From: a virus | Virus record (IMG/VR): IMGVR_UViG_3300047319_000011 | Coordinates: 1-33,079 of that record | Strand: one strand, 5' to 3' | Length of the DNA: 33,079 bases | Part shown: positions 26,245 to 32,169 of the stretch, in pieces | How the letters are laid out: each line of letters opens with the position of its first letter | Numbering within the stretch: the stretch's first letter is position 1 | Made by a program: the position numbers and the translations under genes | The notes under the pieces: model-generated | The model's input: the letters and a program-made list of their open reading frames with translations, nothing else | Databases searched by the model: none | What the model was told of the DNA's origin: nothing

Positions 26245-27663
26245 TTACTTACGGTTCGCCCAAAAATCGGCGTGGATCTTGTTGATGTCGGTTGCTTCGG
26301 ATGCTGCGTCGGTCGTCTTGCGAGCGACAGTCTTGTTCTTCTGCTTGACGAGTTCCGACGCAGCGTGGAAAGCCATCTTTGCAGCGTCACAGGTCATCTT
26401 CGACACATCAGCATCGCCGGTGATCGCGCGTACCAGATCGGCGTTGTCGGTGGTCAAGGCAGTGCGCAAAGCACGGCGGCGCAACACGCACAGTGCGTCT
26501 GCAGTCTTCTTGCCATCTGCCTTGGCGTCGAACGTCGGCAGCTTCACGCCAGGAGCGAGGATTTCAGCACGCGCCTTGGCGTCCTGGAATTCGTCGCGGA
26601 ACGATGCGGAATCGTTGGTCGACTTTTTATCGTCGTCTTTCTTTTCCTCTTCGCCATCCGAGTCTTCGGTCATGTCTTCATCACCGTCGCCGTCCGACTC
26701 GTCGTCCTTGGTTTCTTCCTTATTTTCTTCCTCGGTCGAATCCTTGGTGAGAGCCTTGACGGAGCCCTCGAGAGAAGTGAGGCGTTCATCGAACTTGGTC
26801 AGCACGGCCGCCAGGTCTGGGCCTTCGTCCTTCGTTTCCTCCTTCTCGTCATCCTTCTTGCTTTCCTCGGACTCAGCGTCCTTGGTTGGCATGTGGATGT
26901 GGATCGCGGGCATGTTGCCCCCGGCGCCGTCCTCGTCGTTCACCTCTTCAAGCGCTTTCTCAAAACCTTCCGAGTCACGCGCCATAAACAGCTTGCGCAT
27001 CTTGTCCGAAAAGGACGTAGCGCCTTTCTTTACAGCCATGGGTTCATCTCCCAAAAGTACTTTCGAACTGTCCTGGACACTACAGACAGGGCCACAGCGG
27101 GCGTTCTTCACAAGCGCCACGTGGTTTCCCACGATTGATGCCTGCCGCGCCCGCCCAGGCGCGATTTGCTGGTATTCCGCGTCGTATCCGCAGGAGATTT
27201 CCTTCAGACCGTTGTTACGAATTTCGTTGATGGCGCCTTTGTCGGTGATCAGCAGATCAGCAATCAACAGGTGGCTTTGGTCGCCTTGTCCACGACGGAT
27301 GTTGTGCGCAGCGCCTTTTGACAGGTAGGCCCAGTTATCTGGCGTCACAGGCTCGTCCGGATGGTTGAGCGTCACCGGCTTGCCGAGAAAGCTGGCGATC
27401 GTTTCCGGAGCGAACACCGCATCTTCGTCTCGCTCGACAACAATCACGCCGTCCTTGTCTTCAATGTCGGGGAGTTCTATGCCGACATAGTCCTGGGTGC
27501 CGGTACGCGCAATTGGCACGGCCTCGCAGAGCAGATAGCCTTCCGGAGTGAAGGACTGATGCGGCCCAAGCTGCTCTTCAGAGAAGAATCCGCTGGCCGT
27601 GATCGAGTCTTTCGTAGGCGTGCGTTTGCTCACGCACGCTTTGCAGTCGCACGCATGGGACAT
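26245..27663 (-). CDS. DUF2213 prohead protease with acidic scaffold-like C-terminus
   Basis: The 472-residue protein has the DUF2213 domain at about 20-190 (FTPEGYLLCEAVPIARTG, LPDIEDKDGVIVVERDEDAVF, KPVTLNHPDEPVTP, ISCGYDAEYQ, GNHVALVKNARCG). That family is thought to be a capsid maturation protease. Residues about 240-370 are extremely acidic (E, D, K, S repeats), and the last 100 are helical and basic. A protease-scaffold fusion is likely, since no separate scaffold is seen. The ATG has no clear Shine-Dalgarno and follows a structured region; a GTG 10 codons in is possible. Confidence 0.85.
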   Translation of the reverse strand: MSHACDCKACVSKRTPTKDSITASGFFSEEQLGPHQSFTPEGYLLCEAVPIARTGTQDYVGIELPDIEDKDGVIVVERDEDAVFAPETIASFLGKPVTLNHPDEPVTPDNWAYLSKGAAHNIRRGQGDQSHLLIADLLITDKGAINEIRNNGLKEISCGYDAEYQQIAPGRARQASIVGNHVALVKNARCGPVCSVQDSSKVLLGDEPMAVKKGATSFSDKMRKLFMARDSEGFEKALEEVNDEDGAGGNMPAIHIHMPTKDAESEESKKDDEKEETKDEGPDLAAVLTKFDERLTSLEGSVKALTKDSTEEENKEETKDDESDGDGDEDMTEDSDGEEEKKDDDKKSTNDSASFRDEFQDAKARAEILAPGVKLPTFDAKADGKKTADALCVLRRRALRTALTTDNADLVRAITGDADVSKMTCDAAKMAFHAASELVKQKNKTVARKTTDAASEATDINKIHADFWANRK

Positions 27664-27830: not shown

Positions 27831-28334
27831 TTATTTCACCAGACCGTGATCGTAATAACGTCGGCCGTCCGAATAACGTTTCACGGTCAGGATGGCGTTG
27901 TGCTTCTCCCCGCCGATCTCAATCGTCGCGTGATATGTCTCGACGGACAGAACGTTGACGTCACCGCGCTTGTCTGACGCGGTCGCTACCAATTTCGCAT
28001 TTTCAAGCAGGGATGGGATCGCAGGGACCGTTCGCACCAGCGTATCTGATGCGCCGGAAAGCGTGTGCTTGACGCCCTTGCGAGTGACTAGCACATCATT
28101 CCCAGTCGCCTTGTTCTTGAACGACTTGCCAATGAATCCCTCGGCATGCTCCAAGGCCTTCTGCCGCAACTCCTTCATGCTAGTGAAGTCACCGAGCTCG
28201 TCGCCTTTCAGCGATACGGCTCCACTCGACGCAGGGCCACCACTTCCAAACTGTCCATTTCCCTTGCGCGGATGCTTCTGCTCCTCCCAGCTCGAGTCCC
28301 GAACGTGGAAATAGATGTGAAGCGATTTGGGCAT
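27831..28334 (-). CDS. LPD3/BECR-like domain protein, in frame after the MuF gene
   Basis: The 167-residue product starts MPKSLHIYFHVRDSSWEEQKHPRKGNGQF, a linker of the kind seen at the C-terminus of MuF proteins (W-x-E-x-K-H-P-R-x-x-x-G-x-F). Then come LKGDELGDFTSMKELRQKAL, TRKGVKHTLSG at about 85-95, IPSLLENAKLV and a C-terminal YHATIEIGGEKHNAIL, RYYDHGLVK. I recognise the LPD3 type, possibly related to BECR nucleases. It begins immediately after the MuF amber stop, in the same frame, with no Shine-Dalgarno. A MuF-linked effector or virion-borne toxin is an inference. Confidence 0.65.
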   Translation of the reverse strand: MPKSLHIYFHVRDSSWEEQKHPRKGNGQFGSGGPASSGAVSLKGDELGDFTSMKELRQKALEHAEGFIGKSFKNKATGNDVLVTRKGVKHTLSGASDTLVRTVPAIPSLLENAKLVATASDKRGDVNVLSVETYHATIEIGGEKHNAILTVKRYSDGRRYYDHGLVK

Positions 28335-29081
28335 CTAGTCAGGAATGATGGGTTCTGCCCAGCATCGGCAGTTGTATATGCAGCCGGGATTGGCACGTGC
28401 TCCGGTCCGCTCATCGGCGACGGGAGGGTTGAGCCACTGGAAGACGCGGCCGTTCAGCTTTCGGTGGTCGCTCCGAACGTCCGAATCTTCGGATGTGTGC
28501 CAGATGTACGAATCTGAACCGATAGAGAGGGCGCGCGCCTCAGTAAGTGTTGTGGCAGTACGCGACACTTCGGTGCGTGCAATTGTGTTGGCGCGACTCG
28601 CCGTCACCTCGCCGGTGCGCATGATCTCTTTGGCGAAGACGCTCGCGCGGGTTGAGTCTTCGATGCCAGCGAGCGTGAGATGATGCACACGCTGCGCTGC
28701 TTCCCGCGGAATGCTCTGAATCAGATCAACCTGCTCGGCTAGGAGCTGACGCATCACAACGCCGGTCGGCGCATTGCGAATTTCTTCCCGAAGACCCCGT
28801 GACAGGTCTTTTGCCAGCACCTTCCACGTCTGCTCATCCCGCAGCGCGACATCCATCAGCATGTTGCTGGCAGTCTGCGTGGCCCAGCCCTTGAGCATGT
28901 CCGCGTAGGCGTTTAGCAGGTGCTCGATCGTCGGCACCTGGCTCATGTCGCCGGGTGTGAATGGCTGGATGATGGATCCGACTTGCTGCGCCACCTTGCG
29001 CAGTTGCGAGCCGTACCGAAGCTCTGCGCCTCGCGTCCTGACCGGGTTGCGTTCGCGCTTGCGGTCAAGGGTTAGGATCAT
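28335..29081 (-). CDS. MuF / SPP1 gp7-like minor head protein
   Basis: The 248-residue protein starts MILTLDRKRERNPVR and has a long helical body. It ends with ARTEVSRTATTLTEARAL, WHTSEDSDVRSDHRKLNGRVF and NPGCIYNCRCWAEPII, the classical MuF C-terminal core. It is a minor head component thought to act in head assembly or ejection. The longer GTG frame (29108) is less likely since the ATG overlaps the portal stop as ATGA, with AAGAAG ahead. Its TAG is followed directly by an in-frame ATG of the LPD3-like gene. Confidence 0.88.
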   Translation of the reverse strand: MILTLDRKRERNPVRTRGAELRYGSQLRKVAQQVGSIIQPFTPGDMSQVPTIEHLLNAYADMLKGWATQTASNMLMDVALRDEQTWKVLAKDLSRGLREEIRNAPTGVVMRQLLAEQVDLIQSIPREAAQRVHHLTLAGIEDSTRASVFAKEIMRTGEVTASRANTIARTEVSRTATTLTEARALSIGSDSYIWHTSEDSDVRSDHRKLNGRVFQWLNPPVADERTGARANPGCIYNCRCWAEPIIPD

Positions 29082-30529
29082 TTCTTCTTGCGAAAGCGTT
29101 TGAGCCACGAAACGGCAGAGCCGGAATCGCCAGTCAGAGACGACATATCAGGCAAGTCCATCTCGCCGGGTGGCGGGGCGTTCTTTTCCTGTTCTTCGGC
29201 CTCGGCGATTGCTTCGTCCGTGATGCCGCCGAACATGCCGGTATTCGGAGCCGATGCTTTCAACTCCTTCATGCCGTCACTGATCTTGATGAGGTTAGCG
29301 TCGACCGCGGCAGTGACTGCCTCAACAGTCGACTTTGCAATCTCCGATTTTTCCTTCTCAGACATTTCTTGAAGGTTCCGGAACTCGAAGCCGAAGTCGT
29401 CGGGCAGCGGCTTGCCAAGCGACGACATTGACATGACAGCGAATAGGCGCTGCAGAGGGTTTCTGAGCTTGCGCTCCTGATTCTGCTTGACCTTCTCATG
29501 CCACTGCTTCATTTCCCCTTCACCCGTCGCTCCGAGACCGGTAGGCGACTGACCGAACAGCCGGGTGAATGGCATTCCGAGTGCGCCGCACAGTTGCTGC
29601 GCGAATTGAAGCAGCATGTCTGACAAGCCGGCGAACGAGTACTGATGAGCTTCAAACTTGTCTTTCCCGTCTACTACCGTGATGCCTTCGTTTGTTTGCC
29701 CTTGCCGGATGAACTCCATCTGCTTATGAAGTGCTGCTAAGGCTGGACCACCCATTGCGATGATGTCTCGCAGTTTGTCGACCGTCATCGTGCGGAGGTG
29801 CGCTTTGTAGATCAGCTGGCCTGCACCAACAGATGCGCTGTCGAATGCAATCAGACGGTCCCACATCGGCTCGAGCACCGACAGACCCCAGCCGTTCTCA
29901 GTGACACGCTGATAGAACGGCAGATCCATGCCATCCAGACGGATCGCCCGGGTGTAGTGGATATGTGCCTTGGGGATCGCCGCATAGTCCGCAATTACAT
30001 CGTAGTAGACCGGGCGACCCATATCGGGCCCGTATTCGGTCACTACGTCGCCGATCGGCGGGCTGATCATCCAACGATCCAGGACGAGCAGTCCTTTGAA
30101 CTGATCCTTGCCGACAGTTTCGGGCCGCAGCGGCGTCGATAGATCTTGTCCATCGATCAGCATGACAGCGATACAACCGCCGTACAGGTTCGCCCACTTG
30201 CCAGTGTCGCACAGCGCATCCCAAACAGCCATGCGCATCAAGTCCTGATCGAACCTGGTGATGTCCTCCGGATCGATCCCGGAAAACTCAACGCCCGCTC
30301 GCGTCATGTCTTCGGGCAATGCATCAACGGCTGCGCGAACGATCCATGAGCCGCGATAAGCCGCCTCCAGGTTGATCCGGTTGCGGCTCTGATACGACAG
30401 CGTGTACTGAGATGCAGACGACTGGTTATTCGTGCCCCAGCCTACGTTCGCGGCGAAGTTGGTGAAGCTGTCGTTCGTGCGGACCGGTTGCGTCACGCCA
30501 ACCTTCTGATTTCGACGTGACTTGGACAT
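29078..30529 (-). CDS. Portal protein (DUF1073)
   Basis: The 483-residue protein fits the DUF1073 portal family: RNRINLEAAYRGSWIVRAAVDALPEDMTRAGVE (about residues 48-80), LYGGCIAVMLIDGQD (115-129), YYDVIADYAAIPKAHIHYTRAIRLDG and MPFTRLFGQSPTGLGATGEGEMKQWHE. Twelve copies should form the portal ring that docks terminase. Some family members are fused to an Acb1 anti-CBASS 2H domain; here the C-terminus stops after an acidic/helical region, and I see no paired H-x-[ST] motifs. Start: ATG with AAGGA 11 nt upstream. It overlaps no TerL bases. Confidence 0.9.
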   Translation of the reverse strand: MSKSRRNQKVGVTQPVRTNDSFTNFAANVGWGTNNQSSASQYTLSYQSRNRINLEAAYRGSWIVRAAVDALPEDMTRAGVEFSGIDPEDITRFDQDLMRMAVWDALCDTGKWANLYGGCIAVMLIDGQDLSTPLRPETVGKDQFKGLLVLDRWMISPPIGDVVTEYGPDMGRPVYYDVIADYAAIPKAHIHYTRAIRLDGMDLPFYQRVTENGWGLSVLEPMWDRLIAFDSASVGAGQLIYKAHLRTMTVDKLRDIIAMGGPALAALHKQMEFIRQGQTNEGITVVDGKDKFEAHQYSFAGLSDMLLQFAQQLCGALGMPFTRLFGQSPTGLGATGEGEMKQWHEKVKQNQERKLRNPLQRLFAVMSMSSLGKPLPDDFGFEFRNLQEMSEKEKSEIAKSTVEAVTAAVDANLIKISDGMKELKASAPNTGMFGGITDEAIAEAEEQEKNAPPPGEMDLPDMSSLTGDSGSAVSWLKRFRKKK

Positions 30530-30573
30530 GCTTGAGTGAATCCTTTCTTGTGGCTCGCGAGCCTTTGGAAGAT

Positions 30574-32169
30574 TTAGCCTGCTAACTTGATCCAAACGTC
30601 TAGTTCTCTACCGGCCGGCTGATAGCAGATCATCACGGAGTCGGCCAGGTTGGGCGACATTGTTCCTTCCGGTGCCTTGTCGACGACTACCTTGCCGACC
30701 GTATTGATCGTGTAAGTCGGCTGCGACAACTCCATCGTCAACGGGACCAGTTCCTCGAGCTCGGAGTCGATCGATATGAGGTCGTCTGGATCGAATGCCA
30801 TGCCCTCAACCACAGCGCGATAGGTCGTCTGGAATCTGATCCTCAACGCCCACCATGCTTGAGCCTTGGCGTTAGCGAAGAAATCCTTGTTCTTGCGCTC
30901 TTTGACCATCTCGCCTTCTGGGTCATGGACGGCGCCGGAGCCGCGAAATGGCTCGTCTCTAACCGGGTACTTGCCGGCTAGAGCGCGCTGCTCATTGATT
31001 ACGCGGGCATCGCCACGCACGCCAGCACCTAGGCCGTCAGCGTCGTAATCGAACGCTTCGTACCCGCGCTCGTCGCATATTGAAATGGCTCGCTCGACCG
31101 TCGAGAAAATGTCGCTACCTTTTCCAGACCATGACTTGATGCAATCAAGCAGAAATCCGTGCCGTCCCGCAAAGGCATTCTTGTCCTTGCCTTCATCGGC
31201 CACATCGAGTGCGCCGCGACGACTTCCGGTCGGCTCAATGCCGAGCTTTTGGTGAGCGCCAATTGCCGCTTGCACCCACTCGGAGGGGATCAACACTCCT
31301 TCGGTCGAGGCAGCATAGTTGATATCGATTTCCTGGGCGACCGTTACGGCGTCCAGGACTTCTCGCTGTTTCGCATACCAGGCGTCATCTTTGCGTGGGT
31401 CATCGCGCCAATGGAACGTGAAAACCTTTATCTTCCCACTGTGCCGGCGCTGTGCAAACGAATTCCCCATCCCGTTCGGTGTGGAGATGTCCTGTCGACA
31501 ATTTGTTGTCGCCGACAGTGAGGCGTCAACCAGTTGCGGACGCTCAAGGAACGCCGATTCGTCGACAATATAGAAACTTGCCCGATCCCCGCGGCCAATG
31601 CCATCCCCTGATTCGCCTGTAATGACCGAGCCACTGTCAGGGAAGATGATGCGCATGTGCGGAGCATGGGAAGAAACGCTCCACGATCCTCGAAACTCGG
31701 CCGGCAGCAACGACATGAATTGCCGCGCCTTCCAAAACAGCGACTTTGGAGATCCGATCTTGTCGACGTACTCTTCTTTGCGGGAGCCGAATCCAACCAC
31801 GACGCCGGGGCTGAACAGGCAAACAGTGTCGGCTAGCGCCACCGTGAGCCACGACATCCCCATGTCGCGCGTCTTTTCTGTGATACCGGGCTCCTGTGCC
31901 TTCCAGCGCTCGAGGAACCAGACGATCCACTCTTCTTGCTTCGGGAATAGCAGGAAAGGGATCTGGGCAGGCAGTCCTCGCTCGACATTGCGAGGGTCAA
32001 ACGTCATACCCCAGTCAATGATGAATTGCGCCGGATTGTCCCGGTAGTACGTCTTCAGCGCGGGAACCAGTTGCGGCTCCGCGCGAATGCGCCGTAGCCG
32101 CTCCGCCCGCCACTCGAACACCTGCACGTAGTCAGGGTTGCGGAAGTCAAACGGAAACGGGATTGGCAT
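30574..32169 (-). CDS. terL: Terminase large subunit
   Basis: The 531-residue protein packages DNA with ATP and cuts it. The ATPase shows a Walker A-like EKTRDMGMS at 98-106 and Walker B FYIVDES at 199-205. The nuclease has an RNase H-like set: Asp322 (ALDVADEG), Asp374/376 (DYDADGLG) and Asp510 (NLADSV). The start is only 1 nt past the stop of the small subunit. It lies directly before the portal, in normal order. The packaging mode (cos or headful) cannot be judged from the window. Confidence 0.95.

What the first reader, a model, noticed from the sequence alone, without database searches (positions are those of the whole stretch)
27831..29081. In-frame amber codon joins a MuF head protein to an LPD3/BECR-like domain
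The MuF gene ends in TAG and the next codon, in the same frame, is the ATG of the downstream gene. The downstream protein opens with a linker typical of the C-terminus of MuF proteins and has no Shine-Dalgarno. In related phages such domains are fused to MuF (MuF toxins are known). Here suppression of one stop would make a 416-residue fusion; without it, two proteins result. This may be regulated readthrough that loads a few toxin-bearing copies into each head, re-initiation, or recent decay.
Basis: partly seen in the sequence, partly recalled or inferred. Interest (0 to 1): 0.75.

Follow-up and report, generated by a model that had tools for sequence, protein, structure and literature searches.

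The report
Separate tagged phage effector gene
The stop codon between two phage genes is an ordinary gene boundary, but the second gene starts with a short, strongly conserved peptide that many phages place in front of toxin-like proteins, possibly a label for cargo carried in the virus particle.

Summary
The sequence facts hold. On the minus strand the MuF gene (28335-29081) ends in TAG, and the ATG of a 167-residue LPD3 gene follows in the same frame without a Shine-Dalgarno.

Readthrough and decay of a fusion are not supported. In all 27 records compared with this gene order (20 distinct), MuF has its own stop and LPD3 its own conserved ATG. In 15 they lie apart, in 6 they abut out of frame, in 6 in frame, one of these with TAA. 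None of 31 LPD3-bearing viral records fuses LPD3 to MuF; six fuse it to the portal. The best reading is stop-start coupling that makes two proteins.

The linker is not a MuF feature: 0 of 141 MuF reading frames carry it. It is a widespread motif, D..[FW].E..HPR..NGQFG.G. Portals precede it in 37 of 49 upstream parts. Zeta toxin, LPD3, ADP-ribosyltransferase, PBECR1 and topoisomerase domains follow. In 28 of 85 motif clusters it opens a stand-alone protein. I read it as a tag on virion cargo, for loading or cleavage; this is inferred. A BECR-like fold for LPD3 has weak support.

The parts
28335..29081 (-). MuF (SPP1 gp7-like) head protein, 248 aa from the ATG at 29081, stop TAG at 28337-28335; its ATG overlaps the portal stop by 4 bases
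   Evidence: PF04233 E 1.9e-16; TIGR01641; phrog_324 head morphogenesis; gap -4 to the portal gene
28332..28337 (-). TAG stop of MuF followed directly by the ATG of LPD3, same frame
27831..28334 (-). Stand-alone LPD3 protein, 167 aa
   Evidence: PF18798 at residues 52-161, 106.7 bits against a cut-off of 27; relatives
28302..28334 (-). N-terminal segment MPKSLHIYFHV (residues 1-11), conserved as M[AP].xLHI..H. in solo relatives
   Evidence: a similar [IL]H.H pattern in 7 of 28 solo motif clusters, with different cargo in some
28236..28301 (-). Tag motif, residues 12-33 (RDSSWEEQKHPRKGNGQFGSGG)
27852..28181 (-). LPD3 domain, residues 52-161: a helix, helices carrying H90, then a four-stranded sheet
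29078..30595 (-). Context: portal protein (Phage_portal_3), without the tag
   Evidence: PF06381 E 2.7e-109; no tag in the window outside LPD3
26245..27663 (-). Context: DUF2213 protein, putative head maturation protease
   Evidence: PF09979 E 1.1e-48; phrog_530

Best explanation
These are two separate, adjacent late genes. Ribosomes end MuF at TAG and re-initiate at the abutting ATG, making a free 167-residue LPD3 protein (separate genes: about 0.93; re-initiation rather than independent initiation: about 0.75, inferred). The protein opens with a short linear motif, D..[FW].E..HPR..NGQFG.G, that phages of the Phage_portal_3 / DUF2213 head type place between the portal and C-terminal effector domains, or at the start of stand-alone effectors. 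Its presence in a solo protein means the LPD3 domain does not need to be fused to be used. I take the LPD3 protein to be virion cargo, carried in the head and released into the host, with the tag serving loading or proteolytic release (about 0.5, inferred). The LPD3 domain may be an RNase of BECR-like fold (about 0.4, inferred). Shown: the gene structure, the motif, its contexts. Not shown: expression, packaging, cleavage, activity.
For: 27 of 27 records: MuF with its own stop, LPD3 with its own ATG and conserved start; 15 apart, 6 abutting out of frame, 6 abutting in frame. The in-frame state needs at least 2 changes on a MuF tree of 19 rows. Coupled junctions are common in this window: 8 of my 34 ORFs overlap the previous one by 4 bases. 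Motif: 85 clusters; E at -3 and F or W at -5 in 85 of 85, neither required by the pattern; G at +11 in 82 of 85. Codons vary at each conserved residue. Upstream parts: portal 37 of 49, MuF 0 of 49. Downstream parts, of 77: Zeta toxin 14, LPD3 11, ADPrib_exo_Tox 8, DUF2213 4, PBECR1 2, Topoisom_I 2. 28 of 85 clusters have the motif within 60 residues of the start of a frame that is closed upstream. It lies in low-confidence stretches of both models, solo and portal-fused.
Against: No expression or virion data. The immediate MuF-LPD3 junction is in frame in 6 of 27 records, so readthrough there is not strictly excluded. LPD3 has no Shine-Dalgarno, so its output could be low. The tag might be only a spacer. 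No motif-free set of portal_3 phages was examined, so the link to DUF2213 may only reflect head type. Foldseek gives no PDB match at E <= 0.001 and mostly NTF2-like folds. The best VIA-align Z is 5.8, below the 8 that the tool advises.
Confidence: 0.75

Rival explanations
1. Programmed readthrough of the TAG puts a few MuF-LPD3 fusion copies into each head.
For: Same frame, no stop beyond TAG, no Shine-Dalgarno for LPD3; TAG-ATG kept in three contigs at 77% MuF identity.
Against: 21 of 27 records cannot make the fusion by reading through one stop; the in-frame relative L028 has TAA; 5 further same-frame records have an intervening gene or spacer with one more stop. RNA z = -0.72. The linker is absent from 141 MuF frames.
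Confidence: 0.04
2. A recent stop mutation split an ancestral MuF-LPD3 fusion.
For: The two frames are contiguous.
Against: No LPD3-MuF fusion in 31 LPD3-bearing viral records; MuF ends at the same place with different stops, and LPD3 starts with a conserved M[AP] in 27 of 27 records; the junction is kept at 77% MuF identity.
Confidence: 0.02
3. The motif is only a flexible linker that joins domains, with no recognition role.
For: Low predicted confidence in both contexts; it is followed by Gly/Ser/Ala-rich sequence.
Against: E, F/W and the HPR and NGQFG core are far more conserved than a spacer needs; 28 of 85 clusters have it near the start of a solo protein, where nothing large is joined.
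Confidence: 0.3
4. The motif is conserved as a DNA joint for exchange of effector modules by recombination.
For: Different domains follow the same motif, mostly after one portal type.
Against: Codons vary freely at the conserved residues across clusters, so the constraint is on the protein; exchange between close relatives is not excluded.
Confidence: 0.08

Closest known systems
MuF polymorphic toxins (PMC5576092, passages seen)
   Same: A MuF head protein next to an effector-like domain in a phage head operon
   Different: In those the toxin is a C-terminal extension of MuF in one polypeptide; here LPD3 is a separate gene, and its motif was not found on MuF
Polyvalent proteins and their solo domains, LPD3 included (PMC5512222, passages seen)
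   Same: The LPD3 domain; effector domains fused to portal; solo LPDs near phage structural genes are described there
   Different: The passages I saw do not describe this tag; the word 'linker' does not occur in its main text
Portal-, Nudix- and protease-fused effectors of phage heads (PMC9503650, passages seen)
   Same: Nudix and ADP-ribosyltransferase domains fused to portal, MuF or the capsid-processing peptidase
   Different: Here the recurrent peptide at the joints, and at the start of solo proteins, is the feature; 'linker' does not occur in its main text
T4 capsid-targeting sequence of internal proteins (recalled; titles only)
   Same: Would work like it: an N-terminal peptide that marks proteins for the head and is cut by the head protease
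   Different: No sequence relation was tested, and neither packaging nor cleavage is shown here
BECR-fold CdiA-CT tRNases such as Kp342, PDB 6CP9 (PMC9086364, passages seen)
   Same: Among the best structural matches of the LPD3 model, Z 5.5 for 6cp9_C
   Different: Weak Z, no sequence match in the PDB set, activity unknown

Membership tests
LPD3 (PF18798) | Match over the curated Pfam cut-off along the whole domain | tested here: met
   106.7 bits against 27; profile positions 2-114 of 114
MuF / SPP1 gp7 head protein (PF04233, TIGR01641) | Match over the curated cut-off | tested here: met
   61.3 bits against 29.6; 51.7 against 39.65
MuF polymorphic toxin | Toxin domain as a C-terminal extension of at least 100 residues on the MuF polypeptide (definition in PMC5576092, passage) | tested here: not met
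   MuF ends at TAG in the window and at its own stop in 27 of 27 records
MuF polymorphic toxin | Small immunity gene downstream | tested here: inconclusive
   167 bases separate LPD3 from the DUF2213 gene; no ORF of 50 aa or more lies wholly within that gap; shorter ones were not examined
Programmed stop-codon readthrough | In-frame arrangement kept across the family | tested here: not met
   In frame and abutting in 6 of 27 records
Programmed stop-codon readthrough | Stimulating RNA structure at the stop | tested here: inconclusive
   z = -0.72 for 130 nt; pseudoknots not modelled
Programmed stop-codon readthrough | Fusion protein detected | not testable with these tools
   Needs proteomics or reporters
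Polyvalent protein | Two or more effector domains in one polypeptide | tested here: not met
   Only LPD3 found in the 167-aa protein; it is a solo form
BECR-fold RNase | BECR fold | tested here: inconclusive
   VIA-align Z 5.8 (7m5f_C) and 5.5 (6cp9_C), CdiA toxin-immunity entries, at the top of the list; Foldseek 0 matches at E <= 0.001 and mostly NTF2-like; profile comparison with a PBECR3 protein aligns mainly the tag, not the domain core
BECR-fold RNase | Catalytic residues and RNase activity | not tested
   H90 is nearly invariant in alignment A2, but no active site was mapped
Capsid-targeting / head-protease signal (T4 CTS type) | Directs proteins into the prohead and is cleaved there | not testable with these tools
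   Needs virion proteomics

The most novel reading that the evidence does not exclude
The ~20-residue motif D..[FW].E..HPR..NGQFG.G is a general cargo signal of Phage_portal_3 / DUF2213 phages. It is placed between the portal and effector domains and at the start of free effectors (LPD3, PBECR, Zeta, ADP-ribosyltransferase, topoisomerase, RelA/SpoT-like), and is recognised inside the prohead by the portal, a scaffold or the head protease, so that toxin-like proteins are loaded, cut free and delivered with the DNA. The LPD3 gene of this window would be one solo client.
Probability: 0.35. Interest if true: 0.8.

Novelty: new variant of a known kind. Interest (0 to 1): 0.5.

Why it matters
The stop-codon story itself is ordinary. 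What may matter is the peptide: if it is a loading or release signal, it gives a sequence handle for finding head-carried effectors, many of them without a known domain, in a large group of phages, and it makes the question of how such phages choose their internal proteins directly testable. Even if it is only a linker, it marks the joint where effector modules are attached.

Tried and rejected
Rejected: readthrough and recent decay (see rivals). Linker as a MuF feature: rejected on 0 of 141 MuF frames. That set comes from loci fetched for LPD3 or for the motif, so it says nothing about distant MuF families; MuF-toxin fusions in other phages are described in the papers.

Led nowhere or weak: structure search against the PDB (no match at E <= 0.001, mostly NTF2-like). 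Sequence search of the PDB with A2 (none). Comparison of LPD3 with a PBECR3 protein (the match runs over the tag and the 48 aligned columns do not reach the domain core). BLAST with the 43 N-terminal residues in phages (7 records at E up to 10). The first genome-contig scan confirmed no relative of 45 stretches; the second confirmed 6 of 47, of which one (L201, Burkholderia anthina) carries LPD3 along its whole length and five match only the tag region; I did not examine those five. Pfam gave no domain for the solo proteins L106, L139 and L021. A common protease site was looked for in 29 window proteins: [FWYL].E..H occurs in three (terminase small subunit, LPD3, a 632-aa protein) and HPR only in LPD3, so the major head protein shows no shared site; this weakens the protease idea.

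Of 124 matches, 3 with fewer than 14 residues before the motif and those cut short after it were left out; 99 unique 38-mers gave 85 clusters. One match (L137) looks like chance. I scanned 49 of 53 upstream parts and 77 of 80 downstream parts, leaving out those of second motif copies. The 32 contigs are 32 of the 34 listed contigs of 25 kb or more; L103 and L160 were left out by oversight. No motif-free control set was run for DUF2213. Loci L054-L057 and L059, which match residues 12-92 only, were not counted as LPD3. The list of 34 window ORFs taken as genes is my own choice.

Papers: that the motif is not in print rests on (four peptide strings, 0 papers; listings), and on passages of PMC5512222 and PMC9503650. 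It is not an exhaustive claim. No paper was read whole.

Full report
What is there. The window is a virus record of 33,079 bases with no group given. On the minus strand run terminase small and large subunits, portal (Phage_portal_3), MuF, LPD3, DUF2213 and the major head protein. MuF ends ...PIIPD, TAG; the next codon is ATG, opening MPKSLHIYFHVRDSSWEEQKHPRKGNGQFGSGG.... The protein is LPD3 by Pfam (PF18798, E 1e-30) and MuF is PF04233 (E 1.9e-16). MuF most likely starts at the ATG at 29081, which overlaps the portal stop by four bases; the longer frame from GTG 29108 is the mechanical one. The upstream region of LPD3 has no Shine-Dalgarno (+0.7 kcal/mol; shuffled median -2.5), but several other ORFs here are as poor, and 8 of the 34 that I took as genes overlap the previous one by four bases.

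Relatives of the junction. I compared 27 records in which a stand-alone LPD3 gene follows MuF: the window, 23 viral contigs, Burkholderia phage BgManors32, phage WC36-2 and Burkholderia anthina. They make 20 distinct cases. In 15 records (14 distinct) the genes lie 80 to 565 bases apart; in BgManors32 a separately annotated gene lies between them, and it is a DUF6527 protein. In 6 records (3 distinct) they abut out of frame. In 6 records (3 distinct) they abut in frame, five with TAG and one (L028) with TAA and a TTG codon before the ATG. The MuF stop is TAG in 5, TAA in 2 and TGA in 20. Five of the separate records are in the same frame but have one more stop in between. The LPD3 start is ATG in all 27, followed by a conserved [AP].xLHI-type sequence (L002, L033 and their kin have HIHV or HIHF). 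On a tree of 19 MuF rows the in-frame state needs at least two changes. So the arrangement drifts while both proteins persist, which is what separate genes do.

Fusion as the ancestral form. Of 31 LPD3-bearing viral records (L023 to L053, the last cut by its contig end), 23 have LPD3 alone after MuF, 6 have it fused to the portal C-terminus (L045, L046, L047, L049, L051, L052), 1 has NUDIX-tag-LPD3-DUF2213 (L048) and 1 has it alone upstream of MuF (L050); none has it fused to MuF. The portal-fused ones resemble a prophage of Helicobacter pametensis, where LPD3 follows the C-terminal part of a portal of the HI1409 family. An Achromobacter phage has an LPD3-like stretch in a very long protein annotated as putative portal.

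The linker is a motif. After removal of near-copies, 85 clusters remain. Two positions that the pattern does not ask for are fixed: E three residues before H (85 of 85) and F or W five before (46 F, 39 W). G at +11 is present in 82 of 85, D or K at -1 in 80 of 85, A at +3 in 74 of 85; conservation fades within about 10 residues on either side. Codons vary at each conserved residue, so the constraint is on the protein. In one search a looser pattern was found in 32 of 32 long contigs (33 places) and the same pattern read backwards in none.

Where the motif sits. In 32 of 85 clusters it lies more than 450 residues into the frame, in 28 within 60 residues of the start, in 7 at 61-200, in 4 at 201-450, and 14 frames run off the contig. 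Of 49 upstream parts scanned, 37 are Phage_portal_3, 6 NUDIX, 2 inorganic pyrophosphatase, 1 DUF2213, 1 ADP-ribosyltransferase and none MuF. Of 77 downstream parts, 14 have Zeta toxin, 11 LPD3, 8 ADPrib_exo_Tox, 4 DUF2213, 2 PBECR1, 2 topoisomerase I, 1 ddrB-ParB and others one or two each; families can overlap on one protein and others have no match. A PBECR3 protein with the tag lies in the same contig as a portal-tag-LPD3 fusion (L058 and L047). In 16 of 119 loci a looser pattern finds two motifs: in 10 within one frame, in 6 in two separate frames (L082, L111, L177, L100, L188, L192). The second proteins include a topoisomerase I (L192, E 3e-23) and a RelA/SpoT-like match below the Pfam cut-off (L082, 19.1 bits against 27). 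Among MuF frames in the loci then held, 0 of 141 (95 unique) carry the motif.

Which phages. Of 32 long motif contigs, 29 have Phage_portal_3, 25 DUF2213 and none the S78 prohead protease family. No motif-free control was run, so this may only describe one head type.

Fold. The LPD3 domain is predicted with pLDDT of mostly 80 to 91 per ten residues, the first 40 residues at about 50. In a portal-tag-LPD3 fusion most of the tag lies again in a low-confidence stretch between portal and LPD3 (overall pTM only 0.48). In the solo relatives the tag is about as conserved as the domain (majority fraction 0.84 against 0.79; 10 of 22 invariant) and more than the spacer after it (0.63; 0 of 8), on 13 rows of which several are close kin. 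The best VIA-align matches of the LPD3 model are CdiA toxin-immunity entries, Z 5.8 (7m5f_C) and 5.5 (6cp9_C), then 6cp8_A at 4.3; the tool warns that Z under 8 may be only a common arrangement, and NTF2-like folds follow from 3.7. 6CP8 and 6CP9 are BECR-fold tRNases (PMC9086364, passages). Foldseek has no match at E <= 0.001, and its list is mainly NTF2-like. Against viral models the matches are LPD3 and other polyvalent proteins.

How it most likely works. Shown: separate genes, the motif, its contexts. Inferred: ribosomes finishing MuF restart at the abutting ATG; the LPD3 protein is made with the head proteins; the tag marks it as head cargo, as it marks effectors tied to the portal; LPD3 acts in the host after DNA entry, perhaps on RNA. 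A simple spacer is not needed in front of a solo protein, which is why I favour a recognised signal over a linker, but loading, docking and cleavage cannot be told apart here. The absence of a like site in the window's major head protein speaks against a general head-protease site.

Known and new. Effector domains fused to portal or MuF, and solo LPDs near structural genes, are described (PMC5512222 and PMC9503650, passages); MuF toxins are described (PMC5576092, passages). I found no description of this motif in the searches made, which is a limited check.

Noticed in passing
28236-28301: The tag motif itself, shared with portal-effector fusions and solo effectors across viral contigs; 28 of 85 motif clusters are solo proteins, and several have no Pfam domain.
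   Followed up: yes
L048:3021-5363: NUDIX, tag, LPD3 and DUF2213 (putative head protease) in one polypeptide.
   Followed up: partly
L082:6057-6968 (minus): Tagged protein with a RelA/SpoT-like match below the Pfam cut-off, next to a second tagged ORF.
   Followed up: partly
L106:4710-5336, L139:4160-4837 (minus), L021:2498-2839: Solo tagged proteins with an [IL]H.H-type start and no Pfam domain; in L071 and L060, the same contigs as L106 and L139, they lie just upstream of a portal.
   Followed up: partly
L001:3694-3984: A DUF6527 gene sits between MuF and LPD3 in Burkholderia phage BgManors32.
   Followed up: no
L202-L206: Tag-region matches in bacterial genome contigs titled Gastranaerophilales, uncultured bacterium, Mannheimia haemolytica and Bacteroidetes.
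   Followed up: no
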